Positions 789-51,878 of a stretch of DNA of 64,000 nt are shown here, piece after piece. The notes beneath the pieces were generated by a model that worked only from the letters and a program-made list of their open reading frames with translations, had not been told where the DNA came from and ran no database searches. Origin of the DNA: Cinnamomum chago (lineage: Eukaryota > Streptophyta > Magnoliopsida > Laurales > Lauraceae). Location: assembly GCA_038049695.1 (NCBI GenBank), contig CP142452.1, positions 107,331,001-107,395,000 on the forward strand. The letters are read 5' to 3'. The stretch's first letter is position 1. Each line of letters starts with the position of its first letter. The translations under genes and the position numbers were made by a program.

Positions 789-1048
789 TGAAAGTCCACG
801 AGGATCCTAACCCTAGAGGGGGGGGGGGTGAATAGGGTGAGCTACAACTATGACCAATTTAAACCAATTTTAATTTCTTAAACAAAACTAGTCACATGTG
901 ATGAATAATCAATCAATATGCGGAAGCTAAACAAATCAATCACCACATAGCAATCACCACAACACAATATTTATAGTGGTTCGGCCAACGTGCCTACATC
1001 CACTACCGGCTTGTGTATCCAACACCCCACCGGATTTCACTATTTATG

Positions 1049-1182
1049 CTTTTTACTAGGCTAAGCAATAACCCTTACAAAGTTGTTTTTCTAGGCTAAA
1101 CAACAACCTCTCAATGTGCTTTTAGAGGCTAAGCAATAACCTTTACAATGTGCTTTTCAAGGCTAAGCAATAACCTTTACAA
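1049..1182 (-). repeat. Leader tandem repeat of LTR-B, 4 units here and 5 in other B LTRs
   Basis: Units of about 32-37 bp have the form GCTTTT-n-AGGCTAAGCAATAACCTTACAA. Full B LTRs have five units and A LTRs have six. The unit missing here lies between two ACAATGT words, consistent with slippage. The block lies roughly 800-900 bp downstream of the TATA box in sense, so it would be in the transcribed leader. Confidence 0.85.
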
Positions 1183-1972
1183 ATCAAGATTTCTCAAAGA
1201 AAGTGTCTTCACAAAAGAACACTCCAAGAGATACAATTTAAGCTCAATTTAATTTGCCTCTAAATAGGCGGATATGAAAATTAAAACTAACTCACACAAA
1301 CACTCAAAGAAATGCAAAGATGTATGCTTATGAAGTGTAAGTGTGAAAACTTCAATCAAGTTTAAAAGTAAGCTCAATCAATTTGTGCTTAATGCACTTT
1401 GAAAGTTTAAGGCACAAAAAGATATGATTGAAGTTCTATGCAAATCACTTGAACAATTACACACTTGTGAATGATATGAAAATCTAAAGATCACAAGTTG
1501 TATGAAAGTGTTTAAGCCTAATCAAGTGATGCATGTGCAATGTTGTTTTCAAAAACTAATTTGACTAAAGATTAAATGAATGAAAACAACAAGGGAAGTT
1601 TCAACCAAGTGAAGTAATCATGCAATAAAGGAAATCAAAGATTTATGGCTAAGCATGATTAAGAAAGTTTAAAACAAAACTTGGGTTGAAATCAAAGTGA
1701 TGAATCCAATCTTGAATATCAAAGATGGAGGGAAGAAAGGATTCAACACATCATTGTTATCATGCTTGAAATCATTTTCTAAAGTTTCAAATAAAGCACA
1801 TAACAAATGATTAATTAAAAGTAAAACTTACTTGGAGATTTAACTTAGTTGATCCAAGCTTAAGCTTCACTTAATGACCCCTTGATGTCTCTTAGATCAT
1901 CCCCTTTGTCTTGTCTCAAAGCTCCTCAAAGAAGGCTTAAAAATCTCCAACCAAAGACAAAGGAAAGAACTC

Positions 1973-2176
1973 ATTTATATCCCCAAAACAGCCCAACGGC
2001 TAGTTTACCCGGTCAACCGGCCATAACAGGCAGGTTAACCGGCCAAGCACAACGGTCATAAAAAGAGCCGTTGTGTTTTGGGTCATCCTGCACTGTGGCC
2101 GGTTAACCGGGCTAACATGGCCGGTTAACCGGCTACACTGCGGGTTGACCACCCCGGTTAACCCCATGGTTAACCC
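1973..2176 (-). promoter_or_regulatory. LTR-B promoter box: TATA, palindromic GGTTAACC sites, AACGG cores
   Basis: The TATA box (plus strand ATTTATAT) is at 1973-1980. Upstream in sense are GGTCAACC at 2011, GGTTAACC at 2033, 2101, 2123, 2156 and 2169, and GGTTGACC at 2143. Two pairs are exactly 22 bp apart (2011/2033 and 2101/2123). CCCAACGGCTA at 1992-2002 fits the plant MSA consensus YCYAACGGYYA, and further AACGG/CCGTT cores lie at 2051 and 2068. The same box occurs in the other B LTRs, with TATA at 17511, 42667, 48713 and 54759. MSA elements bind three-repeat MYB factors in G2/M genes. That role is an inference here. Confidence 0.6.
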
Positions 2177-2675
2177 CGCAGCACCAAAATTCCCAAAAAA
2201 TGCATTTTTCACAGTTTTGCTTGGGGGAACTTTTTGGCCACTAAATCAAGCTTGGAAAACATGTTTTAAAGATTCTAAAGGTTTTTAAAACATGACATAA
2301 AAAGCCTAAAAAGTTTCAAAACTTTTAAAACAAAGGCTTGCTTGATTTCTTGAAAACTCTTTTCAAATGAAATTGCATACACAAATGATTCTTTTTGTGA
2401 TGAATGTATGCAAAACTCAAACCTAAATTCACAAGATGATTTTCCAAATATAATGCACAAGGAATTAGGTTTTCAAAAGAGTTTTGGGTTCTAAAACCAA
2501 TGCATCCAAGTTTAAAACCAAACCATGCATAAAACAAAAGCTTTCCCAAATCTTAAAAGCTATGCATGTATAAAACTAGATTTCAAGATATTTTAAATCA
2601 ATGCATGTGTGTGAATTCAAAAGATGCCAATATGCAAATGCATCCATCAAATTGCAAATACAAAATCTCTAACAA

Positions 2676-3165
2676 TCTCCCCCTTTGCAATTTGATGGCA
2701 ACTTACTCATCATTGAAATTACACACTTAGTCTTCAGCTCCCCTTAAGCTGGACAAGTCTAGAAATCTTCTTGGATGCTCCTTCTCTTAGCCTGGGCTCT
2801 TTGGCTCTTTTCTTCAATCTTCTTGATGCTTGGAGCTTGATCATTCTTCAAGCTTTCTCTTCTCATCTTCCTCTTTATGGCCAAGCATCTTCTTTAGCTC
2901 CAAGCTTTCCTTCTTCTATTTGCTCTCCCCCTTTGTCCATGCCTCTCTCTTCCTTTGGCAAGATATGCATTCACTCCCTTTGTAGAAGATCATACACAAC
3001 TCTCCTTAGGAAGCTTGGACATTCTCTTCACCCTTCTTGAGAACTTGAATTCTTTCTCCCCCTTTGATGGATAGGAGATCTTCGAGTACTTGAACTCTCG
3101 AACTCTCTCCCCCTTTGAAGAGTAGGAGATCTTTGAGTCACACTTGAACTCTCTCTCCCCCTTTG
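2676..3165 (-). repeat. Five copies of the PPT-like 12-mer CAAAGGGGGAGA in unit B1
   Basis: On the plus strand TCTCCCCCTTTG occurs at 2676-2687, 2924-2935, 3055-3066, 3106-3117 and 3154-3165. The first is the true polypurine tract, ending next to the LTR. The last three lie in about 50-bp degenerate repeats (3035-3170) that also share ACTTGAACTCT and TAGGAGATCTT. A units keep only three copies (near 8573, 8821 and 8955). Extra tracts could prime additional plus strands during reverse transcription, as central PPTs do in some retroelements. That is inference. Confidence 0.75.
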
Positions 3166-3362
3166 ACATTAAATTGCAAAGGTACCTACACACATGAGAC
3201 AAGAAAAATACCTTTAGTAGCACCTGTTAACAAATGAAATCGAAAATGAAATTCATAACAGGCTATCATGTATGTAAGTTAACTCTAAGGGCTCAAAGGC
3301 AATCCAAGGGTGAATTTGATCAAAACTAATACTTCCTATGAAGGTTTACACTCCCCCTCAAT

Positions 3363-5138
3363 CCATTCTCTTCTTTTGTCAAACTTTTGACAAGATATAA
3401 CTATTAGATTCAAGAAGTAGATGGTTTAACCAAGTGAGGGTCAACTTCAAGGAAAGGATTAGATTCATATAACTATAAGGCTCATATGATCAAATTACCA
3501 AAAGAGAGCAAGGTCTAAAGGGAAAAACGATCATGGATACCAATTGAAATAAACATATCAATTGAGATTAAAGGATGTGACTATAAACTCAATCACTCTA
3601 AAATGGATTTAAGAGAATATAACTAATAGGATAAAATCCAAGTTAGAGCTATCCATGATGCAATGGGGTTTTACTAAAACATAGCATCAATCAATATAAC
3701 TTATGAAAATCATATGCTATGTAAGTTTTGAACTCATTTCATTCAATTAATAAATATGACTATTAAAGTTCAAGATGAGTGAAATGAAATTCAAACATGA
3801 AGCCAACCTCAAATAATAACCAACCAATATTATTAACACATAAACATGGTGGTCATGAGATATACCTATAGGAGCAAAGGAGGTGGCAACATGAGCATTA
3901 TGATGCTAATGGTGTGTGACATGGAACAATCATATTACTATCAAGCTCAATCCATTGTACACAAGGTCTATCACATACACAAGAAATCAAATCAATCAAA
4001 AATTATACCAATAGAAACCAATTGAATTTGATAACATGATAAAGAGCAAGAATGCGGCAAACTCCATCAAGCATCATAAATGTATATTCATCACTTTAAA
4101 AATATAACTATTGAGCATAGTGATGAACATGGTAAATTGCAATGCAAAAGAATATTACTTGGTAATGCATGCAATTTCCAAAGTGTCAAAATCATATGAA
4201 TTCAACATCTAAGATATCCATCAAACATATAGAAATACAATGAATGGATTTCAAAGATATTCATATGATCAAGAACACTACTATGAGGTTGAAACATGTA
4301 TAAGGATGATATCAAGAGAGTCTACATGAATCAACATCATAACCATCCAAAAAGAAATGACTAGAAAGCATAGAGGATGGATTTGGGTTCTAGTATGGTT
4401 TCTACAAGTGTAACTAAGGTCACAACCATACATGGAACCAAATGTCATTTGCATATTAAAAGAATAACTAAATGAGCATAGATGCAAACAACATTCATTT
4501 CCATTTCTAAGATAATGAAACCAAAAGAAAAGGAAATGATAACATGGAACATGCTTAGAAGATTATAACTAATGATGTTAAAAAACATTTCCATTCAACC
4601 AATCTTCAAATCATTTTGATAAACAAAATCCAACAATGAGCATAAAAGAATGATTTTGAAGATCAATTTTCAACATGTATATTAAAAGATATAACTTAAT
4701 TGAAACACATACAAGTTGAATTTTCAAAACAATGATTTTCCATATAAAAATATAACTTAGAAATCCATGGAAAAACTTGAATTGAATCAAATCATTTGAT
4801 TTACAAAAAGGATCTAACTAAGACATCCATCAAATGATTTAACAACAATTGATCATGAAAAATCTAGCTATAAAGCTTTTGAAATCACAATCAATTGCTC
4901 ATGTAGAAATGCAATGCAAAACATAAAACTAAATGAGTGCAAAAAGCAAATCAAACATGATGAAATTATAATCAAGAGATTTTGAAAACCATGACATGTA
5001 ACTTAGAATGGTGTATGAAAACAAAATCAATTGATCATAAAGAAGCAATGCATTTTAAGAAATGTAACTAAGAAGGAACAAAATGCAAATGCAACATGAC
5101 CAACAAAGTGATTTAACTATTAAAGAATAGGTTGGTCA
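3363..5138 (-). other. Hairpin train with TATAACTA loop motif, unit B1
   Basis: At least 20 consecutive inverted repeats have arms of 6-13 bp and loops mostly of 23-30 nt, and the loops hold variants of TATAACTA. The clearest, as left arm/right arm, are 3679-3687/3714-3722 (9 bp), 4087-4095/4119-4127 (9), 4134-4146/4166-4177, 4386-4400/4424-4439, 4669-4680/4709-4720 (11 of 12), 4736-4743/4767-4774 (8), 4789-4800/4829-4840 (12), 5049-5056/5080-5087 (8) and 5097-5104/5131-5138 (8). Others lie at 3363-3424, 3465-3489, 3561-3593, 3604-3640, 3735-3786, 3926-3958, 4343-4380, 4448-4488, 4558-4607, 4846-4897 and 4978-5028. A few strong hairpins lack the motif (3223-3262, 4191-4269, 4603-4662). No open frame spans the region. 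Confidence 0.8.
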
Positions 5139-5153
5139 AGAGGGGTCAAGGCC

Positions 5154-6701
5154 TTAAGGTTTGTCTAGGTAAATAACTTTAGGAATCCACCTAAGGTCTT
5201 GAGAGGGTTGAACTTTGAGGTCTTGTTTTGGAGTCCCACCAACTATAGGAGATTTGACTTGATAAATTTTCAATTTAAACTTATCACCATGATATTTAGA
5301 TTTGACTAAATTTAGCTTAGATTGGTGATTAGTCTTTTGAGGTTGGTGAGTTTTCTTCTTAGGGGATTGATTCATTTTTCTTTTCTTCTTATTTTCTCCC
5401 TTTCTTTGACTTTTGAAATTTAGATTTAACTTTGTAATTTTCTTCAAAAGTTCTTTCATGTTTTGACTTAAGGGAGGTAGGTTGAGAAGCTTTTTGTTCA
5501 TAGATTCTTTTAAGCTTGGTTTGACTTGTTTAACCTTTTTAGAATCTATCTTAGGAGACTCCATTTTAAATGATTTAACTTGTTTAGTCTTTTTGGAGTC
5601 TTCTTTGATTTTTAGTGTCTTACCCTTCATTGATTTTGATTCTATCTTCTTGAGTTCAAAGATGGGTTTAGACACATGGCTTCTCTTTCTTAGTTTGCAC
5701 TCAAACCTAAAATGTCCTTCATTGCCACAATAATCACATTTTGTTTTAGGCAAGGGACAAAGAGTGCTAGAGAAAGAGGACTCACCTTTCACAAAAGTGT
5801 TGGTGAATTTAGGGTCATAAGACATATTCCTATTAAATCCAATACCCGTCCTATCTCCATGAGATTTACCCAATTTGAATAATTTTTCAAGTTTCTCTTC
5901 ACTTTGGGTAAACTTGCACTCATACTTTTGTTTATAGCTTTCAAGTTGAGTGACTTTGGTTATAAGGATTGAATTTTCATTTCTAACTTTTGAAAGTTCA
6001 TTTTCAATTTCCTTATATTTGAATAGCTCTTCATTGGCAAGTTTTAATTCAAGCTTTAGTTCATCAATAACATTAGATCCAAGCTCTTGAGTTTTTAACT
6101 TACTTTTGATCATCTTGGCTTCTAAATTGTTAAAGTCTTTATCTTGTCTTTTAATTGTATCTCTTAGGTTCAAATTTTCATTTTTAAGCTCATCACAATT
6201 TATCTTAATCTCATTTAATTCATCTTGAGCATTAGATTAATTTTCCTTAGAGATAGTCAATTTAGATTCAAGATTGTTAAAGTCTTTATCTTGCCTTTTT
6301 ATTTGATCTCTTAGAATTAAATTTTCCTTATTGACATTATCATAATCCATCTTTAATTCTCTTAGTTCATCTTGAATGTTAGATAGATTATTTAAAGAGA
6401 TCATGAACTTAGATTCTACACAATTTATAAATTCATCTTTTTCTCTAAGTTCATTTTTAGAAGAGTCTAATTCTTGGTTTAGCCTTATAGAATCTTCTTT
6501 TAATCTTTTATTTTTCTTGGAAACCTCTAAGGACCATGTGTACAACTCCTCATAGGCTTCAAGTTCATCATATTCTTCTTCTTTTAATTCAAGTTGAGAT
6601 TCTTTAATTTCAATTTTTGAATCTCCATAAGATGGAAGAATGAGGGGTCTAGAAGAATCTACAAGGTCTAGCATAGTGGAGTCCATTCTAATGATTTTCA
6701 T
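5154..6701 (-). pseudogene. gag, C-terminal half (coiled coil + CCHC), broken copy B1
   Basis: The frame starts at an ATG at 6701 and would be 515 codons, but codon 155 is TAA (6239-6237) where family A has a leucine codon. Beyond the stop the frame stays open to 5154. Upstream of the stop is an acidic N-terminus and the start of the coiled coil. Downstream are the rest of the coiled coil, one CCHC knuckle (CDYCGNEGHFRFEC) and a lysine-rich tail ending YLDKP. The N-terminal gag domain normally found in copia polyproteins is missing, and nothing of protease remains. All four B copies share this stop, so it predates the amplification. If expressed, the product would be a 154-residue coiled-coil peptide without the zinc knuckle. 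Confidence 0.85.
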
Positions 6702-6787
6702 ATAAGGACAACTCTAGGGTTTTAACTCTAGGTTTTTACACCTAATCAAGAGTTCCAAACACTTGATCCTAAGGGATTAGAGCACTT

Positions 6788-6800
6788 GGCTCTGATACCA
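6788..6800 (-). other. Primer-binding site, unit B1
   Basis: The sense strand reads TGGTATCAGAGCC, two bases inside the 5' LTR end. This is the standard plant copia PBS, complementary to the 3' end of initiator tRNA-Met. It fixes the sense of the unit as minus. Confidence 0.95.
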
Positions 6801-7061
6801 ATTGAAAGTCCACGAGGATCCTAACCCTAAAGGGGGGGGTGAATAGGGTGAGCTACAACTATGACCAATTTCGACCAATTTTAATTTCTTAAACTAAACT
6901 AGTCACATGTGATGATTAAACAAACAAGATGCGGAAGCTAATACAAAATCAATCACCACATAGCATGCACCACAACACCAATATTTATAGTGGTTCGGCC
7001 AACGTGCCTACATCCACTACCGGCTTGTGTCTCCAACACCCCACCGGATTCCACTAATTAT

Positions 7062-7265
7062 GCTTTTTACTAGGCTAAGCAATAACCCTTACAAAGTTGT
7101 TTTTCTAGGCTAAACAACAACCTCTCAATGTGCTTTTATAGGCTTAGCAATAACCTTACAATATGCTTTTATTAGGCTAAGCAATAACCTTACAATATGC
7201 TTTTCTTAGGCTAAGCAATAACCTTACAAGTTGCTTTTCAAAGGCTAAGCAATAACCTTTACAAA
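7062..7265 (-). repeat. Leader tandem repeat of LTR-A, six units
   Basis: Six units of 32-37 bp have the core AGGCTAAGCAATAACCTTACAA separated by GCTTTT-type spacers. The same block recurs in every A LTR. Its first unit is the homologue of the site in LTR-B where the A element integrated (22620). Confidence 0.9.
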
Positions 7266-7886: not shown

Positions 7887-8059
7887 CTTTATAGCCAAAA
7901 AGTAGCCAACGGCTAGTTCTCGGTCGACCGGCAAAGAGGTCTCGGTCGACCGAGAAAGCACAACGGATAGATTTCTGACCGTTGGGGCTACAGAATAGGA
8001 TTCTGCAGAAATGACCTGCAGTAGTCTCGGTCGACCGAGACCTGTGTCTCGGTCGACCG
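7887..8059 (-). promoter_or_regulatory. LTR-A promoter box: TATA, four CGGTCGACCG palindromes, MSA-like element
   Basis: The TATA box (sense CTATAAAG) is at 7894-7887. Upstream in sense are four perfect 10-bp palindromes CGGTCGACCG at 7921, 7943, 8028 and 8050, in two pairs each 22 bp apart. Sense CCCAACGGTCA (7986-7976) matches the MSA consensus YCYAACGGYYA, with more AACGG cores at 7908 and 7962. Equivalent boxes have TATA at 13666, 23708, 29487, 35266 and 41045. The paired spacing, about two helical turns, suggests binding of a dimeric factor. That is inference. Confidence 0.6.
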
Positions 8060-9161: not shown

Positions 9162-10925
9162 CCATTCTCTTCTTTTGTCAAACTTTTGACAAAGATTTAA
9201 CTATTAAGTGCAAGAAGAAGATGGTTTAACCAAGTGAGGGTCAACTTCAAGGAAAGGATTAGATTCATATAATTATAAAGCTCATATGATCAAATTACCA
9301 AAAGAGAGCAAGGTCTAATGGGAAAAGCAATCATGGATACCAATTGAAATAAACATATCAATTGAGATTAAAGGATGTGACTATAAACTCAATCACTCTA
9401 AAATGGATTAAAAAGTATAACTATTATGAGAAATCCAAATTAGAGCTATCCATGATATGGGGTTTACTCAAACATAGCATCAATCAATATAACTATGAAA
9501 ATCATATGCTATGAAAGTTTTGAAAATCATTTCATTCAATCAAAAAATATGACTTATTAATGTGCAAATTGAGTGAAATGAAATTCAAACATGAAGCCAA
9601 CCTCAATTAATAACCAACCAATATTATGAACACATAAACATGGTGGTCATGAGATATACCTATAAGAGCAAGTGAGGAGGCAATCATGAACATCATGATG
9701 TTAATGGTGTGTGACATGGAACAATTATATAACTATCAAGCTCAATCCAATGTACACATGGTCTATCACATACACAAGATAAGATATCAATTGGATATTA
9801 AATCAATGGAAAGTTCAAACCAATTGAATATGATAACATGATTAAAAGCAAGGATGTGACAAACACAAGATTCCATCAAGCATCATAAATGCATATTCAT
9901 CACTTTTAAAGATATGACTATTGAGCATAGTGATGAACAAGGTAAATTGCAATGCAAAAGGATATTACTTTTTAAAACATGCAATTTTCAAAGTGTCCAA
10001 ATCATATGAATTCAACTACTAAGATATCCATCAACCAACATAAATGCAAGGAATGGATTTCAAAGAGATTCATATGATTAAGAACACTACTTATGAAGTT
10101 GAAACATGTATAAGGATGACATCAAGAAAATCTACATGAATCAACATCATAACCATCCATAAAGATATGACTATAAGGCATAGAGGATGGATTTGGGTTC
10201 TAGTATGGTTTCTATAAATAAAACTAAGATCACAACCATACATGGAACCAAAAGTCATTTGCATATAAAAAGAAAGTAAATAAACAAGCAAGGATGCAAA
10301 CAACATACATTTCCATTTCTAAGATAATAAAACCAAAAGAAAAAGGAAATGAGTACATGGAACATGCTTAGAAGATTATAACTAATGATGTTATGGAGCA
10401 TTTCCATCCAAACAATCTTCAAATCATTTTAACAAACAAAATCCAACAATGAGCATAAAGAGAATGATTTTGAAGATCAATTTTCAACATTGTATTTGAA
10501 AAGATATAACTTAATTGAAATACATACAAGTTGATTTTTCAAAACAATGATTTCCATATAAAAATATAACTTAGAAGTCTATGGAAAAACTTGAATTGAG
10601 TCAAATCATTTGTTCAAATAGTCTTACAAATGATTCAACAACAATTGATCATGAATAAATTAGCTATGAAAGCTTTTAAAGACACAATCAATTAATCATG
10701 TAGAAATGCAATGCAAAACATATGAGTGCAACAAGCAAATCAAACATGATGAAATTATAATCAAAAGATTTTGAAAACCATGAAGTGTAACTTAAAATGG
10801 TGCAAGAAAACAAAATCAAATGATCATAAAGAAGCAATGCATTTTAATAAATGTAACTAAAAGAAACAAAATGCAAAGCAATCATGACCAACAAAAGGTT
10901 TAACTTATAAAGCATAGGTTGGTCA
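9162..10925 (-). other. Hairpin train with TATAACTA loop motif, unit A1
   Basis: This is the homologue of 3363-5138. Examples are arms 9162-9174/9212-9224 around GATTTAACTATTA, arms 10604-10613/10626-10635 (10 bp, perfect) and arms 10885-10892/10918-10925 (8 bp) around GTTTAACTTATAA. At the second site the stem survives although A and B differ. A B A:T pair (4799/4830) is T:A in A (10613/10626), a change on both sides of the stem. That hairpin has lost the loop motif in A. Confidence 0.75.
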
Positions 10926-10940
10926 ATGAGGTCCAAGGCC

Positions 10941-12467
10941 TTAAGGTTTGTCTAAGTATAAAACTTTGGGAATCCACCTAAGGTCTTGTGAGGGTTGAAC
11001 TTTGAGGTCTAGTTTGGATTTCTCACCAACTATAGGAGATTTGACTTGATAAATCTTCAATTTAAACTTATCACCATGATATTTAGATTTTACTAAATTT
11101 GGCTTAGAATGGTGATTAGTCTTTTGATGTTGGTGAATTTGTTTCTTAGGGGATTGCTTCACTTTTCTTTTCTTCTTATTTTCTCCCTTTACTTGACTTT
11201 TGAATTTTAAATTTAACTTAGCAACTTTATTCAAAAGTTCTTTCATAGGTTGATATAAGGGAGGTAGGTTGAGAAGCTTTTTGTTAATAGATTCTTTGAT
11301 TTTTGGTTTAACTTGTTTAAGCCTTTTAGAATCTATCTTGGGAGACTCCTTGTTACTTGGTTTAACTTGTTTAAGCTTTATGGAGTCTTCCTTGGTTTTT
11401 AGTGTCTTACCCTTCAAGTTTGATTTTACTTTCTTTGGTTCAAAGATGGGATTAGACACATTGCTTCTTCTTAGTTTGCACTCAAACCTAAAGTGTCCTT
11501 CAATGCCACAATAATTACATTTAGACATGGGCAAAGAAGTGTGAGTGCTAGAGAATGAGGACTCACCTTTCACAAAAGTGTTGGTGAATTTAGGGTCATA
11601 AGATATATTCCTATTAAATCCAATACCCGTCCTATCTCCATGATGTTTACCCAATTTAAATAATTTTTCAAGTCTATCTTCACTTTGGGTAAACTTGCAC
11701 TCATACTTTTGTTTATAGGTTTCAAGTTGAGTGACTTTGGTTATAAGGATTGAATTTTCATTTTTAACTTTTGAAAGTTCATTTTCAAGTTCCTTATATT
11801 TGATTAGCTCTTCATTGGCAAGTTGTAATTTATGTTTAAGGTCATTAACAACATTAGTTCCAAGCTCTTGAGTTTTTAACTTACTTTTGATCAACTTGGC
11901 TTCTAAGTTGTTAAAGTCTTTATCTTGTCTTTTAATTGTATCTCTTAGGTTTAAATTTTCATTTTTAAGCTCATCATAATTTATCTTAATCTCATTTAAT
12001 TCATCTTGAGCATTAGATAAATTTTCCTTAGAGATAGTCAATTTAGATTCAAGATTGTTAAAGTCTTTATCTTGCCTTTGTAATTGATCTCTTAGTTTTA
12101 GATTTTCCTTATTGACATTTTCATAATCCATCTTTAATTCTTTTAGTTCATCTTGAATGTTAGATAGATTATTTAAAGAGATCATGAACTTAGATTCTAC
12201 ACAATTTATAAATTCATCTTTTTCTCTAAGTTCATTTTTAGAAGAGTCTAATTCTTGGTTTAGCCTTATAGAATCTTCTTTTAATCTTTTATTTTTCTTG
12301 GAAACCTCTAAGGACCATGTGTACAATTCCTCATAGGCTTCAAGTTCATCATATTCTTCTTCTTTTAATTCAAGTTGAGATTCTTTAATTTCAATGTTTG
12401 AATCTCCATAAGATGGAAGAATGAGGGGTCTAGAAGAATCTACAAAGTCTAGCATAGTGGAGTCCAT
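10941..12467 (-). CDS. gag-like protein (coiled coil + CCHC zinc knuckle), intact copy A1
   Basis: This is a 508-codon frame from the first ATG (12467). The same frame extends five codons upstream to a TTG where family B has its ATG. Residues about 30-265 are predicted coiled coil, rich in E, K and L, with a 49-residue duplication (about 100-148 and 149-197, both containing LRD and RQDKDFNNLE). The CCHC knuckle has C317, C320, H325 and C330 (CNYCGIEGHFRFEC). The last 160 residues are lysine-rich and end RWIPKVLYLDKP. In copia polyproteins protease would follow about here, but a TAA comes instead. The usual N-terminal gag domain is also missing. A role in RNA binding and particle assembly, perhaps alongside an autonomous partner's Gag, is inferred from the family. 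Confidence 0.85.
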   Translation of the reverse strand: MDSTMLDFVDSSRPLILPSYGDSNIEIKESQLELKEEEYDELEAYEELYTWSLEVSKKNKRLKEDSIRLNQELDSSKNELREKDEFINCVESKFMISLNNLSNIQDELKELKMDYENVNKENLKLRDQLQRQDKDFNNLESKLTISKENLSNAQDELNEIKINYDELKNENLNLRDTIKRQDKDFNNLEAKLIKSKLKTQELGTNVVNDLKHKLQLANEELIKYKELENELSKVKNENSILITKVTQLETYKQKYECKFTQSEDRLEKLFKLGKHHGDRTGIGFNRNISYDPKFTNTFVKGESSFSSTHTSLPMSKCNYCGIEGHFRFECKLRRSNVSNPIFEPKKVKSNLKGKTLKTKEDSIKLKQVKPSNKESPKIDSKRLKQVKPKIKESINKKLLNLPPLYQPMKELLNKVAKLNLKFKSQVKGENKKKRKVKQSPKKQIHQHQKTNHHSKPNLVKSKYHGDKFKLKIYQVKSPIVGEKSKLDLKVQPSQDLRWIPKVLYLDKP

Positions 12468-18900: not shown

Positions 18901-20676
18901 CCATTCTCTTCTTTTGTCAAACTTTTGACAAGATATAACTATTAGATTCAAGAAGTAGATGGTTTAACCAAGTGAGGGTCAACTTCAAGGAAAGGATTAG
19001 ATTCATATAACTATAAGGCTCGTATGATCAAATTACCAAAAGAGAGCAAGGTCTAAAGGGAAAAACGATCATGGATACCAATTGAAATAAACATATCAAT
19101 TGAGATTAAAGGATGTGACTATAAACTCAATCACTCTAAAATGGATTTAAGAGAATATAACTAATAGGATAAAATCCAAGTTAGAGCTATCCATGATGCA
19201 ATGGGGTTTTACTAAAACATAGCATCAATCAATATAACTTATGAAAATCATATGCTATGTAAGTTTTGAACTCATTTCATTCAATCAATAAATATGACTA
19301 TTAAAGTTCAAGATGAGTGAAATGAAATTCAAACATGAAGCCAACCTCAAATAATAACCAACCAATATTATTAACACATAAACATGGTGGTCATGAGATA
19401 TACCTATAGGAGCAAAGGAGGTGGCAACATGAGCATTATGATGCTAATGGTGTGTGACATGGAACAATCATATTACTATCAAGCTCAATCCATTGTACAC
19501 AAGGTCTATCACATACACAAGAAATCAAATCAATCAAAAATTATACCAATAGAAACCAATTGAATTTGATAACATGATAAAGAGCAAGAATGCGGCAAAC
19601 TCCATCAAGCATCATAAATGTATATTCATCACTTTAAAAATATAACTATTGAGCATAGTGATGAACATGGTAAATTGCAATGCAAAAGAATATTACTTGG
19701 TAATGCATGCAATTTCCAAAGTGTCAAAATCATATGAATTCAACATCTAAGATATCCATCAAACATATAGAAATACAATGAATGGATTTCAAAGATATTC
19801 ATATGATCAAGAACACTACTATGAGGTTGAAACATGTATAAGGATGATATCAAGAGAGTCTACATGAATCAACATCATAACCATCCAAAAAGAAATGACT
19901 AGAAAGCATAGAGGATGGATTTGGGTTCTAGTATGGTTTCTACAAGTGTAACTAAGGTCACAACCATACATGGAACCAAATGTCATTTGCATATTAAAAG
20001 AATAACTAAATGAGCATAGATGCAAACAACATTCATTTCCATTTCTAAGATAATGAAACCAAAAGAAAAGGAAATGATAACATGGAACATGCTTAGAAGA
20101 TTATAACTAATGATGTTAAAAAACATTTCCATTCAACCAATCTTCAAATCATTTTGATAAACAAAATCCAACAATGAGCATAAAAGAATGATTTTGAAGA
20201 TCAATTTTCAACATGTATATTAAAAGATATAACTTAATTGAAACACATACAAGTTGAATTTTCAAAACAATGATTTTCCATATAAAAATATAACTTAGAA
20301 ATCCATGGAAAAACTTGAATTGAATCAAATCATTTGATTTACAAAAAGGATCTAACTAAGACATCCATCAAATGATTTAACAACAATTGATCATGAAAAA
20401 TCTAGCTATAAAGCTTTTGAAATCACAATCAATTGCTCATGTAGAAATGCAATGCAAAACATAAAACTAAATGAGTGCAAAAAGCAAATCAAACATGATG
20501 AAATTATAATCAAGAGATTTTGAAAACCATGACATGTAACTTAGAATGGTGTATGAAAACAAAATCAATTGATCATAAAGAAGCAATGCATTTTAAGAAA
20601 TGTAACTAAGAAGGAACAAAATGCAAATGCAACATGACCAACAAAGTGATTTAACTATTAAAGAATAGGTTGGTCA
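18901..20676 (-). other. Hairpin train, unit B2
   Basis: Near-identical copy of 3363-5138, offset 15538. I saw no difference that removes a hairpin, though G at 19022 weakens one weak arm. Confidence 0.75.
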
Positions 20677-24982: not shown

Positions 24983-26746
24983 CCATTCTCTTCTTTTGTC
25001 AAACTTTTGACAAAGATTTAACTATTAAGTGCAAGAAGAAGATGGTTTAACCAAGTGAGGGTCAACTTCAAGGAAAGGATTAGATTCATATAATTATAAA
25101 GCTCATATGATCAAATTACCAAAAGAGAGCAAGGTCTAATGGGAAAAGCAATCATGGATACCAATTGAAATAAACATATCAATTGAGATTAAAGGATGTG
25201 ACTATAAACTCAATCACTCTAAAATGGATTAAAAAGTATAACTATTATGAGAAATCCAAATTAGAGCTATCCATGATATGGGGTTTACTCAAACATAGCA
25301 TCAATCAATATAACTATGAAAATCATATGCTATGAAAGTTTTGAAAATCATTTCATTCAATCAAAAAATATGACTTATTAATGTGCAAATTGAGTGAAAT
25401 GAAATTCAAACATGAAGCCAACCTCAATTAATAACCAACCAATATTATGAACACATAAACATGGTGGTCATGAGATATACCTATAAGAGCAAGTGAGGAG
25501 GCAATCATGAACATCATGATGTTAATGGTGTGTGACATGGAACAATTATATAACTATCAAGCTCAATCCAATGTACACATGGTCTATCACATACACAAGA
25601 TAAGATATCAATTGGATATTAAATCAATGGAAAGTTCAAACCAATTGAATATGATAACATGATTAAAAGCAAGGATGTGACAAACACAAGATTCCATCAA
25701 GCATCATAAATGCATATTCATCACTTTTAAAGATATGACTATTGAGCATAGTGATGAACAAGGTAAATTGCAATGCAAAAGGATATTACTTTTTAAAACA
25801 TGCAATTTTCAAAGTGTCCAAATCATATGAATTCAACTACTAAGATATCCATCAACCAACATAAATGCAAGGAATGGATTTCAAAGAGATTCATATGATT
25901 AAGAACACTACTTATGAAGTTGAAACATGTATAAGGATGACATCAAGAAAATCTACATGAATCAACATCATAACCATCCATAAAGATATGACTATAAGGC
26001 ATAGAGGATGGATTTGGGTTCTAGTATGGTTTCTATAAATAAAACTAAGATCACAACCATACATGGAACCAAAAGTCATTTGCATATAAAAAGAAAGTAA
26101 ATAAACAAGCAAGGATGCAAACAACATACATTTCCATTTCTAAGATAATAAAACCAAAAGAAAAAGGAAATGAGTACATGGAACATGCTTAGAAGATTAT
26201 AACTAATGATGTTATGGAGCATTTCCATCCAAACAATCTTCAAATCATTTTAACAAACAAAATCCAACAATGAGCATAAAGAGAATGATTTTGAAGATCA
26301 ATTTTCAACATTGTATTTGAAAAGATATAACTTAATTGAAATACATACAAGTTGATTTTTCAAAACAATGATTTCCATATAAAAATATAACTTAGAAGTC
26401 TATGGAAAAACTTGAATTGAGTCAAATCATTTGTTCAAATAGTCTTACAAATGATTCAACAACAATTGATCATGAATAAATTAGCTATGAAAGCTTTTAA
26501 AGACACAATCAATTAATCATGTAGAAATGCAATGCAAAACATATGAGTGCAACAAGCAAATCAAACATGATGAAATTATAATCAAAAGATTTTGAAAACC
26601 ATGAAGTGTAACTTAAAATGGTGCAAGAAAACAAAATCAAATGATCATAAAGAAGCAATGCATTTTAATAAATGTAACTAAAAGAAACAAAATGCAAAGC
26701 AATCATGACCAACAAAAGGTTTAACTTATAAAGCATAGGTTGGTCA
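24983..26746 (-). other. Hairpin train, unit A2
   Basis: Copy of 9162-10925 at offset 15821. The arms and loops read the same. Confidence 0.72.
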
Positions 26747-30761: not shown

Positions 30762-32525
30762 CCATTCTCTTCTTTTGTCAAACTTTTGACAAAGATTTAA
30801 CTATTAAGTGCAAGAAGAAGATGGTTTAACCAAGTGAGGGTCAACTTCAAGGAAAGGATTAGATTCATATAATTATAAAGCTCATATGATCAAATTACCA
30901 AAAGAGAGCAAGGTCTAATGGGAAAAGCAATCATGGATACCAATTGAAATAAACATATCAATTGAGATTAAAGGATGTGACTATAAACTCAATCACTCTA
31001 AAATGGATTAAAAAGTATAACTATTATGAGAAATCCAAATTAGAGCTATCCATGATATGGGGTTTACTCAAACATAGCATCAATCAATATAACTATGAAA
31101 ATCATATGCTATGAAAGTTTTGAAAATCATTTCATTCAATCAAAAAATATGACTTATTAATGTGCAAATTGAGTGAAATGAAATTCAAACATGAAGCCAA
31201 CCTCAATTAATAACCAACCAATATTATGAACACATAAACATGGTGGTCATGAGATATACCTATAAGAGCAAGTGAGGAGGCAATCATGAACATCATGATG
31301 TTAATGGTGTGTGACATGGAACAATTATATAACTATCAAGCTCAATCCAATGTACACATGGTCTATCACATACACAAGATAAGATATCAATTGGATATTA
31401 AATCAATGGAAAGTTCAAACCAATTGAATATGATAACATGATTAAAAGCAAGGATGTGACAAACACAAGATTCCATCAAGCATCATAAATGCATATTCAT
31501 CACTTTTAAAGATATGACTATTGAGCATAGTGATGAACAAGGTAAATTGCAATGCAAAAGGATATTACTTTTTAAAACATGCAATTTTCAAAGTGTCCAA
31601 ATCATATGAATTCAACTACTAAGATATCCATCAACCAACATAAATGCAAGGAATGGATTTCAAAGAGATTCATATGATTAAGAACACTACTTATGAAGTT
31701 GAAACATGTATAAGGATGACATCAAGAAAATCTACATGAATCAACATCATAACCATCCATAAAGATATGACTATAAGGCATAGAGGATGGATTTGGGTTC
31801 TAGTATGGTTTCTATAAATAAAACTAAGATCACAACCATACATGGAACCAAAAGTCATTTGCATATAAAAAGAAAGTAAATAAACAAGCAAGGATGCAAA
31901 CAACATACATTTCCATTTCTAAGATAATAAAACCAAAAGAAAAAGGAAATGAGTACATGGAACATGCTTAGAAGATTATAACTAATGATGTTATGGAGCA
32001 TTTCCATCCAAACAATCTTCAAATCATTTTAACAAACAAAATCCAACAATGAGCATAAAGAGAATGATTTTGAAGATCAATTTTCAACATTGTATTTGAA
32101 AAGATATAACTTAATTGAAATACATACAAGTTGATTTTTCAAAACAATGATTTCCATATAAAAATATAACTTAGAAGTCTATGGAAAAACTTGAATTGAG
32201 TCAAATCATTTGTTCAAATAGTCTTACAAATGATTCAACAACAATTGATCATGAATAAATTAGCTATGAAAGCTTTTAAAGACACAATCAATTAATCATG
32301 TAGAAATGCAATGCAAAACATATGAGTGCAACAAGCAAATCAAACATGATGAAATTATAATCAAAAGATTTTGAAAACCATGAAGTGTAACTTAAAATGG
32401 TGCAAGAAAACAAAATCAAATGATCATAAAGAAGCAATGCATTTTAATAAATGTAACTAAAAGAAACAAAATGCAAAGCAATCATGACCAACAAAAGGTT
32501 TAACTTATAAAGCATAGGTTGGTCA
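30762..32525 (-). other. Hairpin train, unit A3
   Basis: Copy of 9162-10925 at offset 21600. Confidence 0.72.
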
Positions 32526-36540: not shown

Positions 36541-38304
36541 CCATTCTCTTCTTTTGTCAAACTTTTGACAAAGATTTAACTATTAAGTGCAAGAAGAAGA
36601 TGGTTTAACCAAGTGAGGGTCAACTTCAAGGAAAGGATTAGATTCATATAATTATAAAGCTCATATGATCAAATTACCAAAAGAGAGCAAGGTCTAATGG
36701 GAAAAGCAATCATGGATACCAATTGAAATAAACATATCAATTGAGATTAAAGGATGTGACTATAAACTCAATCACTCTAAAATGGATTAAAAAGTATAAC
36801 TATTATGAGAAATCCAAATTAGAGCTATCCATGATATGGGGTTTACTCAAACATAGCATCAATCAATATAACTATGAAAATCATATGCTATGAAAGTTTT
36901 GAAAATCATTTCATTCAATCAAAAAATATGACTTATTAATGTGCAAATTGAGTGAAATGAAATTCAAACATGAAGCCAACCTCAATTAATAACCAACCAA
37001 TATTATGAACACATAAACATGGTGGTCATGAGATATACCTATAAGAGCAAGTGAGGAGGCAATCATGAACATCATGATGTTAATGGTGTGTGACATGGAA
37101 CAATTATATAACTATCAAGCTCAATCCAATGTACACATGGTCTATCACATACACAAGATAAGATATCAATTGGATATTAAATCAATGGAAAGTTCAAACC
37201 AATTGAATATGATAACATGATTAAAAGCAAGGATGTGACAAACACAAGATTCCATCAAGCATCATAAATGCATATTCATCACTTTTAAAGATATGACTAT
37301 TGAGCATAGTGATGAACAAGGTAAATTGCAATGCAAAAGGATATTACTTTTTAAAACATGCAATTTTCAAAGTGTCCAAATCATATGAATTCAACTACTA
37401 AGATATCCATCAACCAACATAAATGCAAGGAATGGATTTCAAAGAGATTCATATGATTAAGAACACTACTTATGAAGTTGAAACATGTATAAGGATGACA
37501 TCAAGAAAATCTACATGAATCAACATCATAACCATCCATAAAGATATGACTATAAGGCATAGAGGATGGATTTGGGTTCTAGTATGGTTTCTATAAATAA
37601 AACTAAGATCACAACCATACATGGAACCAAAAGTCATTTGCATATAAAAAGAAAGTAAATAAACAAGCAAGGATGCAAACAACATACATTTCCATTTCTA
37701 AGATAATAAAACCAAAAGAAAAAGGAAATGAGTACATGGAACATGCTTAGAAGATTATAACTAATGATGTTATGGAGCATTTCCATCCAAACAATCTTCA
37801 AATCATTTTAACAAACAAAATCCAACAATGAGCATAAAGAGAATGATTTTGAAGATCAATTTTCAACATTGTATTTGAAAAGATATAACTTAATTGAAAT
37901 ACATACAAGTTGATTTTTCAAAACAATGATTTCCATATAAAAATATAACTTAGAAGTCTATGGAAAAACTTGAATTGAGTCAAATCATTTGTTCAAATAG
38001 TCTTACAAATGATTCAACAACAATTGATCATGAATAAATTAGCTATGAAAGCTTTTAAAGACACAATCAATTAATCATGTAGAAATGCAATGCAAAACAT
38101 ATGAGTGCAACAAGCAAATCAAACATGATGAAATTATAATCAAAAGATTTTGAAAACCATGAAGTGTAACTTAAAATGGTGCAAGAAAACAAAATCAAAT
38201 GATCATAAAGAAGCAATGCATTTTAATAAATGTAACTAAAAGAAACAAAATGCAAAGCAATCATGACCAACAAAAGGTTTAACTTATAAAGCATAGGTTG
38301 GTCA
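36541..38304 (-). other. Hairpin train, unit A4
   Basis: Copy of 9162-10925 at offset 27379. Confidence 0.72.
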
Positions 38305-44056: not shown

Positions 44057-45832
44057 CCATTCTCTTCTTTTGTCAAACTTTTGACAAGATATAACTATTA
44101 GATTCAAGAAGTAGATGGTTTAACCAAGTGAGGGTCAACTTCAAGGAAAGGATTAGATTCATATAACTATAAGGCTCGTATGATCAAATTACCAAAAGAG
44201 AGCAAGGTCTAAAGGGAAAAACGATCATGGATACCAATTGAAATAAACATATCAATTGAGATTAAAGGATGTGACTATAAACTCAATCACTCTAAAATGG
44301 ATTTAAGAGAATATAACTAATAGGATAAAATCCAAGTTAGAGCTATCCATGATGCAATGGGGTTTTACTAAAACATAGCATCAATCAATATAACTTATGA
44401 AAATCATATGCTATGTAAGTTTTGAACTCATTTCATTCAATCAATAAATATGACTATTAAAGTTCAAGATGAGTGAAATGAAATTCAAACATGAAGCCAA
44501 CCTCAAATAATAACCAACCAATATTATTAACACATAAACATGGTGGTCATGAGATATACCTATAGGAGCAAAGGAGGTGGCAACATGAGCATTATGATGC
44601 TAATGGTGTGTGACATGGAACAATCATATTACTATCAAGCTCAATCCATTGTACACAAGGTCTATCACATACACAAGAAATCAAATCAATCAAAAATTAT
44701 ACCAATAGAAACCAATTGAATTTGATAACATGATAAAGAGCAAGAATGCGGCAAACTCCATCAAGCATCATAAATGTATATTCATCACTTTAAAAATATA
44801 ACTATTGAGCATAGTGATGAACATGGTAAATTGCAATGCAAAAGAATATTACTTGGTAATGCATGCAATTTCCAAAGTGTCAAAATCATATGAATTCAAC
44901 ATCTAAGATATCCATCAAACATATAGAAATACAATGAATGGATTTCAAAGATATTCATATGATCAAGAACACTACTATGAGGTTGAAACATGTATAAGGA
45001 TGATATCAAGAGAGTCTACATGAATCAACATCATAACCATCCAAAAAGAAATGACTAGAAAGCATAGAGGATGGATTTGGGTTCTAGTATGGTTTCTACA
45101 AGTGTAACTAAGGTCACAACCATACATGGAACCAAATGTCATTTGCATATTAAAAGAATAACTAAATGAGCATAGATGCAAACAACATTCATTTCCATTT
45201 CTAAGATAATGAAACCAAAAGAAAAGGAAATGATAACATGGAACATGCTTAGAAGATTATAACTAATGATGTTAAAAAACATTTCCATTCAACCAATCTT
45301 CAAATCATTTTGATAAACAAAATCCAACAATGAGCATAAAAGAATGATTTTGAAGATCAATTTTCAACATGTATATTAAAAGATATAACTTAATTGAAAC
45401 ACATACAAGTTGAATTTTCAAAACAATGATTTTCCATATAAAAATATAACTTAGAAATCCATGGAAAAACTTGAATTGAATCAAATCATTTGATTTACAA
45501 AAAGGATCTAACTAAGACATCCATCAAATGATTTAACAACAATTGATCATGAAAAATCTAGCTATAAAGCTTTTGAAATCACAATCAATTGCTCATGTAG
45601 AAATGCAATGCAAAACATAAAACTAAATGAGTGCAAAAAGCAAATCAAACATGATGAAATTATAATCAAGAGATTTTGAAAACCATGACATGTAACTTAG
45701 AATGGTGTATGAAAACAAAATCAATTGATCATAAAGAAGCAATGCATTTTAAGAAATGTAACTAAGAAGGAACAAAATGCAAATGCAACATGACCAACAA
45801 AGTGATTTAACTATTAAAGAATAGGTTGGTCA
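44057..45832 (-). other. Hairpin train, unit B3
   Basis: Copy of 3363-5138 at offset 40694. Confidence 0.74.
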
Positions 45833-50102: not shown

Positions 50103-51878
50103 CCATTCTCTTCTTTTGTCAAACTTTTGACAAGATATAACTATTAGATTCAAGAAGTAGATGGTTTAACCAAGTGAGGGTCAACTTCAAGGAAAGGATT
50201 AGATTCATATAACTATAAGGCTCATATGATCAAATTACCAAAAGAGAGCAAGGTCTAAAGGGAAAAACGATCATGGATACCAATTGAAATAAACATATCA
50301 ATTGAGATTAAAGGATGTGACTATAAACTCAATCACTCTAAAATGGATTTAAGAGAATATAACTAATAGGATAAAATCCAAGTTAGAGCTATCCATGATG
50401 CAATGGGGTTTTACTAAAACATAGCATCAATCAATATAACTTATGAAAATCATATGCTATGTAAGTTTTGAACTCATTTCATTCAATCAATAAATATGAC
50501 TATTAAAGTTCAAGATGAGTGAAATGAAATTCAAACATGAAGCCAACCTCAAATAATAACCAACCAATATTATTAACACATAAACATGGTGGTCATGAGA
50601 TATACCTATAGGAGCAAAGGAGGTGGCAACATGAGCATTATGATGCTAATGGTGTGTGACATGGAACAATCATATTACTATCAAGCTCAATCCATTGTAC
50701 ACAAGGTCTATCACATACACAAGAAATCAAATCAATCAAAAATTATACCAATAGAAACCAATTGAATTTGATAACATGATAAAGAGCAAGAATGCGGCAA
50801 ACTCCATCAAGCATCATAAATGTATATTCATCACTTTAAAAATATAACTATTGAGCATAGTGATGAACATGGTAAATTGCAATGCAAAAGAATATTACTT
50901 GGTAATGCATGCAATTTCCAAAGTGTCAAAATCATATGAATTCAACATCTAAGATATCCATCAAACATATAGAAATACAATGAATGGATTTCAAAGATAT
51001 TCATATGATCAAGAACACTACTATGAGGTTGAAACATGTATAAGGATGATATCAAGAGAGTCTACATGAATCAACATCATAACCATCCAAAAAGAAATGA
51101 CTAGAAAGCATAGAGGATGGATTTGGGTTCTAGTATGGTTTCTACAAGTGTAACTAAGGTCACAACCATACATGGAACCAAATGTCATTTGCATATTAAA
51201 AGAATAACTAAATGAGCATAGATGCAAACAACATTCATTTCCATTTCTAAGATAATGAAACCAAAAGAAAAGGAAATGATAACATGGAACATGCTTAGAA
51301 GATTATAACTAATGATGTTAAAAAACATTTCCATTCAACCAATCTTCAAATCATTTTGATAAACAAAATCCAACAATGAGCATAAAAGAATGATTTTGAA
51401 GATCAATTTTCAACATGTATATTAAAAGATATAACTTAATTGAAACACATACAAGTTGAATTTTCAAAACAATGATTTTCCATATAAAAATATAACTTAG
51501 AAATCCATGGAAAAACTTGAATTGAATCAAATCATTTGATTTACAAAAAGGATCTAACTAAGACATCCATCAAATGATTTAACAACAATTGATCATGAAA
51601 AATCTAGCTATAAAGCTTTTGAAATCACAATCAATTGCTCATGTAGAAATGCAATGCAAAACATAAAACTAAATGAGTGCAAAAAGCAAATCAAACATGA
51701 TGAAATTATAATCAAGAGATTTTGAAAACCATGACATGTAACTTAGAATGGTGTATGAAAACAAAATCAATTGATCATAAAGAAGCAATGCATTTTAAGA
51801 AATGTAACTAAGAAGGAACAAAATGCAAATGCAACATGACCAACAAAGTGATTTAACTATTAAAGAATAGGTTGGTCA
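50103..51878 (-). other. Hairpin train, unit B4
   Basis: Copy of 3363-5138 at offset 46740. Confidence 0.74.

What the first reader, a model, noticed from the sequence alone, without database searches (positions are those of the whole stretch)
3363..5138. Train of about 20 hairpins, each displaying a TATAACTA-type motif in its loop
Seen directly: between the gag stop and the PPT segment, unit B1 holds successive inverted repeats (arms 6-13 bp, loops mostly 23-30 nt). Loops carry TATAACTA or close variants such as TATGACTA, TGTAACTA, TCTAACTA or TTTAACTA. Examples: 12-bp perfect arms 4789-4800/4829-4840, and 9-bp perfect arms 4087-4095/4119-4127 and 3679-3687/3714-3722. In RNA sense each loop shows UAGUUAUA-like sequence. 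Arm sequences differ from hairpin to hairpin while loop motif and geometry recur. That is unlike a decayed tandem repeat and suggests selection or a generating mechanism for stem plus loop motif. Possible roles, all inference: Gag or packaging binding sites, display for a host RNA-binding protein, a small-RNA source, or replication cis-signals for a non-autonomous element.
Basis: partly seen in the sequence, partly recalled or inferred. Interest (0 to 1): 0.9.

Follow-up and report, generated by a model that had tools for sequence, protein, structure and literature searches.

The report
Retrotransposon RNA hairpin train with shared loops
A plant mobile element carries about twenty back-to-back hairpins whose stems all differ but whose loops often show the same short motif, and related elements without the gag gene still keep the array, which suggests it is a signal that a protein reads.

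Summary
Region 3363-5138 (element sense = minus strand) forms about 20 hairpins, far beyond dinucleotide shuffles (10 strong stems, shuffle mean 0.6). AGTYA sites lie inside stems far more than chance (z 12.8). The host is a non-autonomous, Sirevirus-like Ty1/copia element with thousands of genomic copies. Across 32 copies, variants shared between copies are rare in stems (0.10 per site) and common in loops (0.35); lone variants differ less. AGTYA hairpins also occur in the gag-like frame, one LTR region and divergent env-bearing relatives. With the first stem intact at 5948 places, 5578 matches carry AGTYA. Fourteen of 30 sampled loci have a primer-binding site but no gag before hairpin 1, yet keep the train. 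Three gag stems show C-G to T-A double changes, in nearly the same nine rows. Best reading: a selected, cis-acting stem-loop array read repeatedly by a protein, most likely Gag during packaging. Selection and cis-action are well supported; Gag binding is inference. Covariation in the train proper is not above its controls, and RNA versus DNA level is unproven.

The parts
3363..5138 (-). hairpin train B1 (noncoding, between gag-like stop and multiple PPTs)
5097..5138 (-). hairpin 1, stem TGACCAAC/GTTGGTCA, loop AGTTAAA; found in divergent families and gag-less relatives
5049..5087 (-). hairpin 2, 8-bp stem, loop AGTTACA
4966..5040 (-). hairpin 3, 19-nt arms, loop AGTTACA; one A-T to G-C double change in 9 of 60 rows
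4844..4899 (-). hairpin 4, loop variant TAGCTAGA
4787..4842 (-). hairpin 5, perfect inner 12-bp stem, loop AGTTAGA
4736..4774 (-). hairpin 6, 8-bp stem, loop AGTTATA
4669..4720 (-). hairpin, loop AGTTATA
4432..4504 (-). hairpin, 23-nt arms (78% complementary), loop AGTTATT
4381..4443 (-). hairpin, 20-nt arms, loop AGTTACA (overlaps 4432-4504; alternative or tiled)
4282..4341 (-). hairpin without AGTYA in loop
4204..4261 (-). hairpin without AGTYA in loop
4127..4184 (-). hairpin, loop AGTAATA variant
4084..4130 (-). hairpin, loop AGTTATA
3725..3796 (-). hairpin, 21-nt arms, loop AGTCATA
3679..3722 (-). hairpin, 9-bp stem, loop AGTTATA
3592..3652 (-). hairpin, 19-nt arms, loop AGTTATA
3363..3424 (-). 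hairpin, loop AGTTATA (this site is not significant in the enclosing-stem test)
5146..5202 (-). hairpin over the gag-like stop; stem kept in gag-less relatives although the loop diverged
5277..5335 (-). gag-region hairpin, loop AGTCA here; C-G to T-A double change between families; AGTYA in 4 of 14 C-G rows and 9 of 9 T-A rows
5409..5451 (-). gag-region hairpin, loop AGTTA
5500..5549 (-). gag-region hairpin, loop AGTCA here; C-G to T-A double change; AGTYA in 13 of 13 C-G rows but 1 of 9 T-A rows
5548..5609 (-). gag-region hairpin, loop AGTTA; C-G to T-A double change; AGTYA in 11 of 13 and 5 of 9 rows
6403..6454 (-). gag-region hairpin; motif absent in this copy's loop, AGTYATA or AGTRATA in many relatives
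5154..6113 (-). C-terminal piece of gag-like ORF with CCHC zinc knuckle (B1 frame is interrupted)
6237..6701 (-). N-terminal piece of the same interrupted gag-like ORF
10941..12467 (-). 508-aa gag-like ORF of the second family with zinc knuckle (below Pfam's cut-off); no Pfam capsid or pol match
9162..10925 (-). hairpin train B2 (88.5% identical to B1)
18901..20676 (-). further copy of train B1 (2 differences)
44057..45832 (-). further copy of train B1 (2 differences)
50103..51878 (-). further copy of train B1 (1 difference)
24983..26746 (-). identical copy of train B2
30762..32525 (-). identical copy of train B2
36541..38304 (-). identical copy of train B2
6789..6804 (-). 5' LTR end plus PBS: CA/ATTGG + TATCAGAGC, the published Sirevirus junction
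2673..2684 (-). terminal PPT AGGGGGAG plus AT/TG attachment site
2925..3358 (-). five upstream copies of the PPT octamer (2925, 3056, 3107, 3155, 3351)
2644..2698 (-). inverted repeat around the PPT/3' LTR junction
789..2674 (-). 3' LTR of unit 1 with CGG-CCG palindromes (2099-2132) and C-rich stretch (818-828); its ends are read by eye

Best explanation
The train is a cis-acting array of stem-loops in the element's RNA, kept by selection on the stems and on a degenerate loop core AGUYA (often AGUUAUA, AGUCAUA or AGUUAAA). Shown here: hairpin excess, core in loops, slow stems and fast loops, retention where gag is absent, recurrence of the design in train, gag frame and divergent families. Inferred: that it acts as RNA, and that a protein reads the loops many times on one RNA. 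The most likely reader is a zinc-knuckle Gag, the element's own gag-like protein or that of an autonomous Sirevirus partner, so that the transcript is collected into particles, as with dispersed packaging signals of some RNA viruses. Gag-less relatives would then be parasites that survive by keeping the array.
For: Hairpins beyond shuffles, with a stretch of the same window (59000-60700) showing no excess. AGTYA enclosed by stems: z 12.8 (B1), 6.4 (B2), 4.8 and 4.6 (gag), 3.1 (LTR region of B1, 4 sites); of seven control patterns in B1 only TCAWT reached z 4.1, and none exceeded 1.4 in B2. AGTTA ranks first of 124 5-mers in B1 and first in both gag regions. B1 to B2 divergence: 4.1% in paired stems, 3.3% in AGTYA, 15.6% in the rest of loops. 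In 32 copies, shared variants per site are 0.097 in stems, 0.138 in AGTYA, 0.346 in loops (Fisher 6e-16; rotation 0 of 1716); lone variants 0.147, 0.262, 0.260. Gag-less cluster: PBS 282-288 nt before hairpin 1 and no long frame in 14 of 14 loci; train kept; stems slower than loops (0.056 against 0.161). Three gag stems with C-G to T-A on both sides and no half-changed row among 22-23. Hairpin 1: 5948 intact-stem places (52 for the backwards pattern), 5578 AGTYA-bearing matches (0 backwards). The element encodes a CCHC protein (below Pfam's cut-off).
Against: No binding, packaging, expression or probing data. 8 of 23 and 12 of 22 hairpins lack AGTYA. In the gag-less set AGTYA is not clearly slower than other loop sites (0.200 and 0.100 against about 0.16). 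In gag hairpins the core turns over: AGTYA in 1 of 9 T-A rows at 5500-5549 and 4 of 14 C-G rows at 5277-5335. Covariation in the train is thin: 4 pairs and 14 double cells of 4203, no better than a slid control (6 pairs, 18 cells at -2), though 93% of cells pair against at most 49% slid (similar). The gag double changes fall in nearly the same nine rows, so one or two branches. Folding is as unusual on the antisense strand. Wobble bias is mixed: shared GU to AC 13:2 (12:2 on rerun) in six strong hairpins, 11:7 and 15:9 in the whole train, 12:19 and 9:13 in gag, 9:3 and 6:4 gag-less. Accessibility: p 0.0006 and 0.003 (B1, B2), 0.05-0.07 in three gag-less loci, 0.17 and 0.04 in gag, 0.80 and 0.04 in E1 and E2 with 2-3 sites. 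No pol-bearing partner with the train was found, and the gag-like protein has no recognised capsid domain.
Confidence: 0.42

Rival explanations
1. The array is read by a host RNA-binding protein or export factor (nuclear export, stability or localisation of unspliced retroelement RNA), not by Gag.
For: Same cis-acting evidence as the best explanation. Gag-less and env-bearing relatives share the design. The motif is short, U-rich and degenerate, as host RNA-binding sites often are (recalled).
Against: No host protein site was identified or searched for. The element keeps a zinc-knuckle ORF in several families, which is the simpler reader.
Confidence: 0.22
2. The whole RNA is generally structured (genome-scale ordered RNA structure, evading single-strand-specific decay or silencing), and the loop motif is secondary.
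For: gag and LTR are hairpin-rich as well, z -5 to -9; a third to half of hairpins lack AGTYA, and the core turns over in gag hairpins.
Against: One specific core is enriched in loops of unrelated hairpins in train, gag and divergent families.
Confidence: 0.17
3. The hairpins are processed into small RNAs, or are a host or decoy silencing substrate.
For: Maize Copia elements, Sireviruses among them, are rich in miRNA-like structure with small-RNA matches (PMC10760457, passages read).
Against: Arms here are mostly 8-23 nt with mismatches and differ from hairpin to hairpin; that would not explain a shared loop core. No small-RNA data here.
Confidence: 0.1
4. Selection acts on DNA: palindromes with a protein site, or cruciforms.
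For: Antisense folding is as strong and the wobble test is mixed. CGG-CCG palindromes are known in Sirevirus LTRs (PMC2829016).
Against: Loops of 20-30 nt between arms are unusual for DNA-binding palindromes (recalled). AGTYA is almost absent on the other strand of the train (1 and 2 sites away from the ends). Gag stems keep pairing through double changes, which a DNA palindrome could also show.
Confidence: 0.1
5. By-product of template switching or other palindrome-making events, or chance in AT-rich DNA.
For: Reverse transcriptase can snap back; local palindromes arise by mutation (recalled).
Against: Shuffles; slow stems and fast loops, strongest for variants shared between copies; the same pattern in gag-less relatives.
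Confidence: 0.03

Closest known systems
Dispersed packaging signals of ssRNA viruses (STNV, MS2; multi-site stem-loops)
   Same: Many stem-loops with different stems and a short degenerate loop motif along one RNA (STNV loop A.X.X.A; PMC3662417, abstract and passages seen).
   Different: STNV and MS2 signals are supported by binding, assembly or structural data; here there is no binding evidence. Loops are 20-30 nt and the host is a plant LTR retrotransposon.
LARD and TRIM non-autonomous LTR retrotransposons
   Same: Gag-less relatives have an LTR end, PBS and a non-coding core; [quoted passage not shown]
   Different: The structures described in the passages seen are LTR super-hairpins of Cassandra; a train of small hairpins sharing a loop motif is not mentioned in them.
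Sirevirus (Ty1/copia) linker domain
   Same: PBS junction, multiple AGGGGGAG PPTs, AT/TG site, junction inverted repeat, CGG-CCG repeats, C-rich signal (PMC2829016, abstract and named sections read).
   Different: In the parts read (abstract, background, sections 6-9, 12, 13, 17) that survey reports no hairpin train or AGTYA loop motif; these elements lack pol.
TR-GAG elements
   Same: Terminal repeats plus a gag-type ORF only (name seen in a search listing; details recalled).
   Different: The ORF here matches no Pfam capsid family; the hairpin train is extra.

Membership tests
Sirevirus (Ty1/copia) | PBS junction CA/ATTGG + TATCAGAGC | tested here: met
   8 of 8 PBS sites found in the window read CAATTGGTATCAGAGC; definition
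Sirevirus (Ty1/copia) | several AGGGGGAG PPTs upstream of the 3' LTR, the last followed by AT/TG | tested here: met
   six octamers in 2677-3358, terminal one AGGGGGAGATTG at 2673-2684; definition
Sirevirus (Ty1/copia) | inverted repeat around the PPT/3' LTR junction | tested here: met
   2644-2698, 15-nt arms; definition
Sirevirus (Ty1/copia) | CGG-CCG palindromic repeats in the LTR and a C-rich integrase signal | tested here: met
   CCGGTTAACCGG (2 exact) and CGGTCGACCG (4 exact), C runs at 818-828 and 6832-6839; definition. The exact copy numbers are below the published minimum of 8, and distances were not measured
Sirevirus (Ty1/copia) | RT phylogeny within the Sirevirus clade | not testable with these tools
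   no RT-encoding frame of 150 aa or more is listed in the units
Dispersed packaging signals | many stem-loops sharing a degenerate loop motif | tested here: met
Dispersed packaging signals | loops bind the coat or Gag protein and promote assembly | not testable with these tools
   no binding or assembly data
LARD-type non-autonomous element | LTRs, PBS, no protein coding, conserved structured core (gag-less relatives) | tested here: inconclusive
   14 of 14 cluster-6 loci: PBS 282-288 nt before hairpin 1, longest frame 104 aa upstream and 115 aa downstream within 1.5 kb; structured core. Whole elements and their 3' LTRs were not fetched
Rfam RNA families | match to a described RNA family | tested here: not met
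   no match at E up to 1 in window 1-13000

The most novel reading that the evidence does not exclude
A multi-site packaging code in a plant LTR retrotransposon: about twenty stem-loops per RNA, with unrelated stems, display one degenerate core to a zinc-knuckle Gag. The same code is used by gag-bearing, env-bearing and gag-less members of one superfamily with thousands of copies, so the array, not any gene, defines the mobile unit.
Probability: 0.3. Interest if true: 0.9.

Novelty: new variant of a known kind. Interest (0 to 1): 0.77.

Why it matters
How plant retrotransposon Gag picks its RNA, and how gene-less elements get mobilised in trans, is largely open (recalled). Here is a defined motif and a set of natural variants that make the question testable by in vitro binding, probing and particle RNA sequencing. 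It would also extend the dispersed packaging-signal idea from RNA viruses to LTR retrotransposons, and offer a signature for finding gag-less elements.

Tried and rejected
Wobble asymmetry as a strand test: first try 14 GU against 6 AC in B1 and 9 against 9 in B2, later tries mixed; not used as support. Covariation in the train as proof: not above a slid control. Relatives in other collections: 5, 43 and 119 pattern stretches but no tblastn-confirmed relative of the gag-like protein in viral contigs and genome contigs. The PPT-junction pattern gave 1 viral and 11 prokaryote contigs, not studied further; taken as chance. Partner search by the env-like protein: 105 matches scored, upstream sequence fetched for 2. 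L112 showed gag, then hairpins, then the env start; L111 showed neither a gag frame nor a pol-like frame by eye in 2.6 kb. Rfam: nothing. Decayed tandem repeat: none reported there. Pairing of the loop motif with the primer tRNA anticodon loop was considered from recall only and dropped because AGTCA loops would break it; no call tested it.

Rows dropped: 10 of the 40 scored copies (4 are the window's own, 6 tandem duplicates). From the six-hairpin alignment I left out six env-bearing rows and, by mistake, five partial copies that do hold the 5' part, while keeping four that lack it; one search repeats the count with that put right (67 rows, 60 after removing identical ones) and gives the same picture. 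Ten gag-less rows were left out of gag counts because gag is absent. The gag-less set was reduced from 14 loci to 10 distinct ones. Many of the rows were fetched by a pattern that demands AGTYA, so their hairpin-1 motif count (57 of 59) is biased.
Full report
What it sits in. The window lies in a 1.06-Gb, 14-contig genome. It is built of tandem and inverted copies of LTR elements whose sense strand is the minus strand. Eight hairpin regions are present: four B1-type copies (at least 99.8% identical) and four B2-type copies, 88.5% identical to B1. The units have published Sirevirus marks: the CA/ATTGG-TATCAGAGC junction at 8 of 8 PBS sites; and, checked in the first unit or two, several AGGGGGAG tracts, the AT/TG site, the junction inverted repeat, CGG-CCG palindromes and a C-rich stretch (definitions in PMC2829016, abstract and named sections). 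The frames of 150 aa or more in the units encode a gag-like protein whose zinc knuckle scores just below Pfam's cut-off, with no capsid or pol match. It is one 508-aa frame in three B2 units (497 aa in the fourth) and interrupted in B1 units. Two public relatives are 75% and 61% identical over nearly their whole length, among 7988 candidates scored.

Is the train real. A greedy scan gives 23 hairpins in B1 and 22 in B2, with the loop motif in 15 and 10 of them. Against 120 dinucleotide shuffles, B1 has 10 stems of score 12 or more (shuffle mean 0.62, maximum 3) and B2 has 5 (maximum 3). A stretch of the same window at 59000-60700 shows no excess. The gag-like frame shows a smaller excess and the LTR one nearly as large. 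RNAfold with span 120 gives z -10.0 sense and -7.9 antisense for B1, -10.2 and -11.0 for B2 (60 shuffles each), so folding alone does not choose a strand.

Is the motif in loops. For 19 sites within one mismatch of AGTTATA in B1, the summed best enclosing stem is 185 against 110.5 (sd 6.7) when the 45-nt flanks are shuffled; for 18 sites in B2 it is 158 against 104.5. With the shorter core AGTYA, z is 12.8 (15 sites), 6.4 (12), 4.8 (11, gag B1), 4.6 (8, gag B2) and 3.1 (4, LTR region of B1); the LTR region of B2 has no such site. Seven control patterns in four regions gave 27 usable tests, 24 of 27 below z 2.2; the exceptions are TCAWT in B1 (4.1) and two in the LTR region (2.5 each). In an open ranking AGTTA is first of 124 5-mers in B1, first of 133 and 145 in the two gag regions and fifth of 130 in B2, but not among the top 14 in either LTR region or in gag and LTR pooled. 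AGTYA is nearly absent on the other strand of the train. Predicted accessibility supports display in B1 and B2 (p 0.0006, 0.003), is marginal in three gag-less loci (0.05-0.07) and mixed in gag (0.17, 0.04) and in E1 and E2 (0.80, 0.04; 2 and 3 sites).

Evolution of stems and loops. Between B1 and B2 the paired stem positions differ at 17 of 412 sites, AGTYA at 2 of 60, other loop sites at 59 of 377, outside at 69 of 813. I fetched 30 of the 40 scored genomic copies and aligned 32 rows. Variants shared by two or more copies, which should mostly date from the active life of the family, are 0.097 per site in stems, 0.138 in AGTYA and 0.346 in other loop sites. Lone variants, which should mostly be later decay, are 0.147, 0.262 and 0.260. 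The stem deficit is strongest where selection on active elements should act, although lone variants also show a milder deficit (p 0.0016).

Beyond the given coordinates. Tblastn with P0002 found divergent families in the same genome. Of 20 fetched downstream stretches, 10 are B-like and 10 show no blastn match to the train. Of these 10, palindromes of the RM kind were seen in the two printed (L060, L074) and env-like frames in the two read (L060, L076). Hairpin 1 is recognisable in 8 of the 10 by a fixed pattern, with stem GACCAAC/GTTGGTC unchanged and AGTYA in the loop. A second hairpin with arms of 22-24 nt and AGTTA or AGTCA in the loop is listed at p<0.06 in 7 of the 10. Z for the first 700 nt is 1.2 to 3.5 over the 10 loci; further downstream it is 0.9 to 3.5 in the five E1 loci and -1.0 to 1.5 in the five E2 loci. 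Two E2 loci that hold the gag frame and about 2 kb upstream of it give z 3.1 (15 sites) and 6.6 (8 sites).

Genome-wide count. GACCAAC...GTTGGTC with 15-35 nt between occurs at 5948 places (52 for the backwards pattern), and the pattern with AGTYA inside has 5578 matches (0 backwards). About 94% of intact stems thus carry the core. This is one hairpin of one superfamily, not independent events.

The strongest point. The loci of the first 30 matches (by position, all on contig C1, tandem copies included) were fetched with 1.5 kb on each side. Fourteen form a cluster in which the PBS lies 282-288 nt before hairpin 1 and the longest frame is 51-104 aa upstream and at most 115 aa downstream; of the other 16 loci, 12 have an upstream frame of 466-494 aa and four 180-418 aa. 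The 14 have no gag there. They nevertheless keep the train: 15-19 hairpins of score 9 or more against shuffle means near 7 in ten distinct loci. The stem of the hairpin that overlaps the gag stop in B1 also survives there, while its loop has changed. In the ten rows (mean identity 0.91) stems again vary less than loops (0.056 against 0.161 shared variants per site with L085 as reference, 0.047 against 0.159 with L103), but AGTYA itself is not clearly slower. A segment of L085 without a blastn match to B1 (444-1175) still gives z 4.0 over 4 AGTYA sites; the like segments of L096 and L102 (1 and 2 sites) do not.

Compensatory change. In 23 gag-bearing rows at 0.69-1.0 identity to B1, three gag stems each show one C-G pair replaced by T-A in 9 rows with no half-changed row; the five stems examined give 5 double types and 30 cells, against at most 3 types and 6 cells when the partner is slid by 1-4. 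The nine rows are the same for two stems and differ by one row for the third, so this may be one or two branches. The loop core is not steady there: at 5500-5549 AGTYA is in 13 of 13 C-G rows but 1 of 9 T-A rows, at 5277-5335 in 4 of 14 and 9 of 9, at 5548-5609 in 11 of 13 and 5 of 9. In the train proper stems vary so little that covariation is thin: 4 pairs and 14 double cells of 4203 in 60 rows, not above a slid control (6 pairs, 18 cells at -2), though 93% of cells pair against at most 49% slid. The wobble test is mixed.

Interpretation. A feature kept by relatives with gag, with env, and without gag must act in cis for the element's own spread. Many different stems that present one degenerate core are what a protein that reads stem-loops repeatedly would select. 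Among proteins present, the family's own zinc-knuckle protein or a partner Gag is the simplest reader; this step is inference. The closest working analogy is the dispersed packaging signals of STNV and MS2 (PMC3662417, abstract and passages). LARD and TRIM elements are already said to have conserved RNA structure (PMC7215508, passages), so conserved structure in a non-coding element is not new. I did not see a recurring loop core in a train of unrelated hairpins in the listings of nine library searches or in the passages read; subscription papers are largely outside that library.

Noticed in passing
L060:1307-2494 (and L112 near its 3' end): Env-like frame of divergent relatives begins MARTKQTARR, which contains the start of the histone H3 tail (H3 tail recalled); a possible chromatin mimic in an env-like protein. 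One paper search (8 of 967 listed) showed no paper on it.
   Followed up: partly
window 22341-55466 and 6803-13000: Tandem head-to-tail arrays of units, with periods of 5779 (B2 type) and 6046 (B1 type) bases; other tandem runs with periods of 3400 to 6432 bases occur elsewhere in the genome.
   Followed up: no
window 2-569 with 786 onward; 13940-16159; 55537-57272 with 57272 onward: LTR pieces in opposite orientation side by side, as if head-to-head elements had lost their middles.
   Followed up: no
window 6126-6416, 11890-12197 and copies: A 147-base tandem duplication inside the gag-like frame, in both families.
   Followed up: no
window 137-307, 1058-1182, 7059-7264: 34-base tandem repeats within LTRs around GGTTATTGCTTAGCC, in several copies.
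   Followed up: no
window 59401-59976: Frame that reads like a copia RNase H end (judged by eye from recall; no Pfam match above its cut-off), not shown to belong to these units.
   Followed up: no
window 4381-4443 and 4432-4504: Neighbouring hairpins share an arm, so the train may be tiled and able to switch between alternative folds.
   Followed up: no
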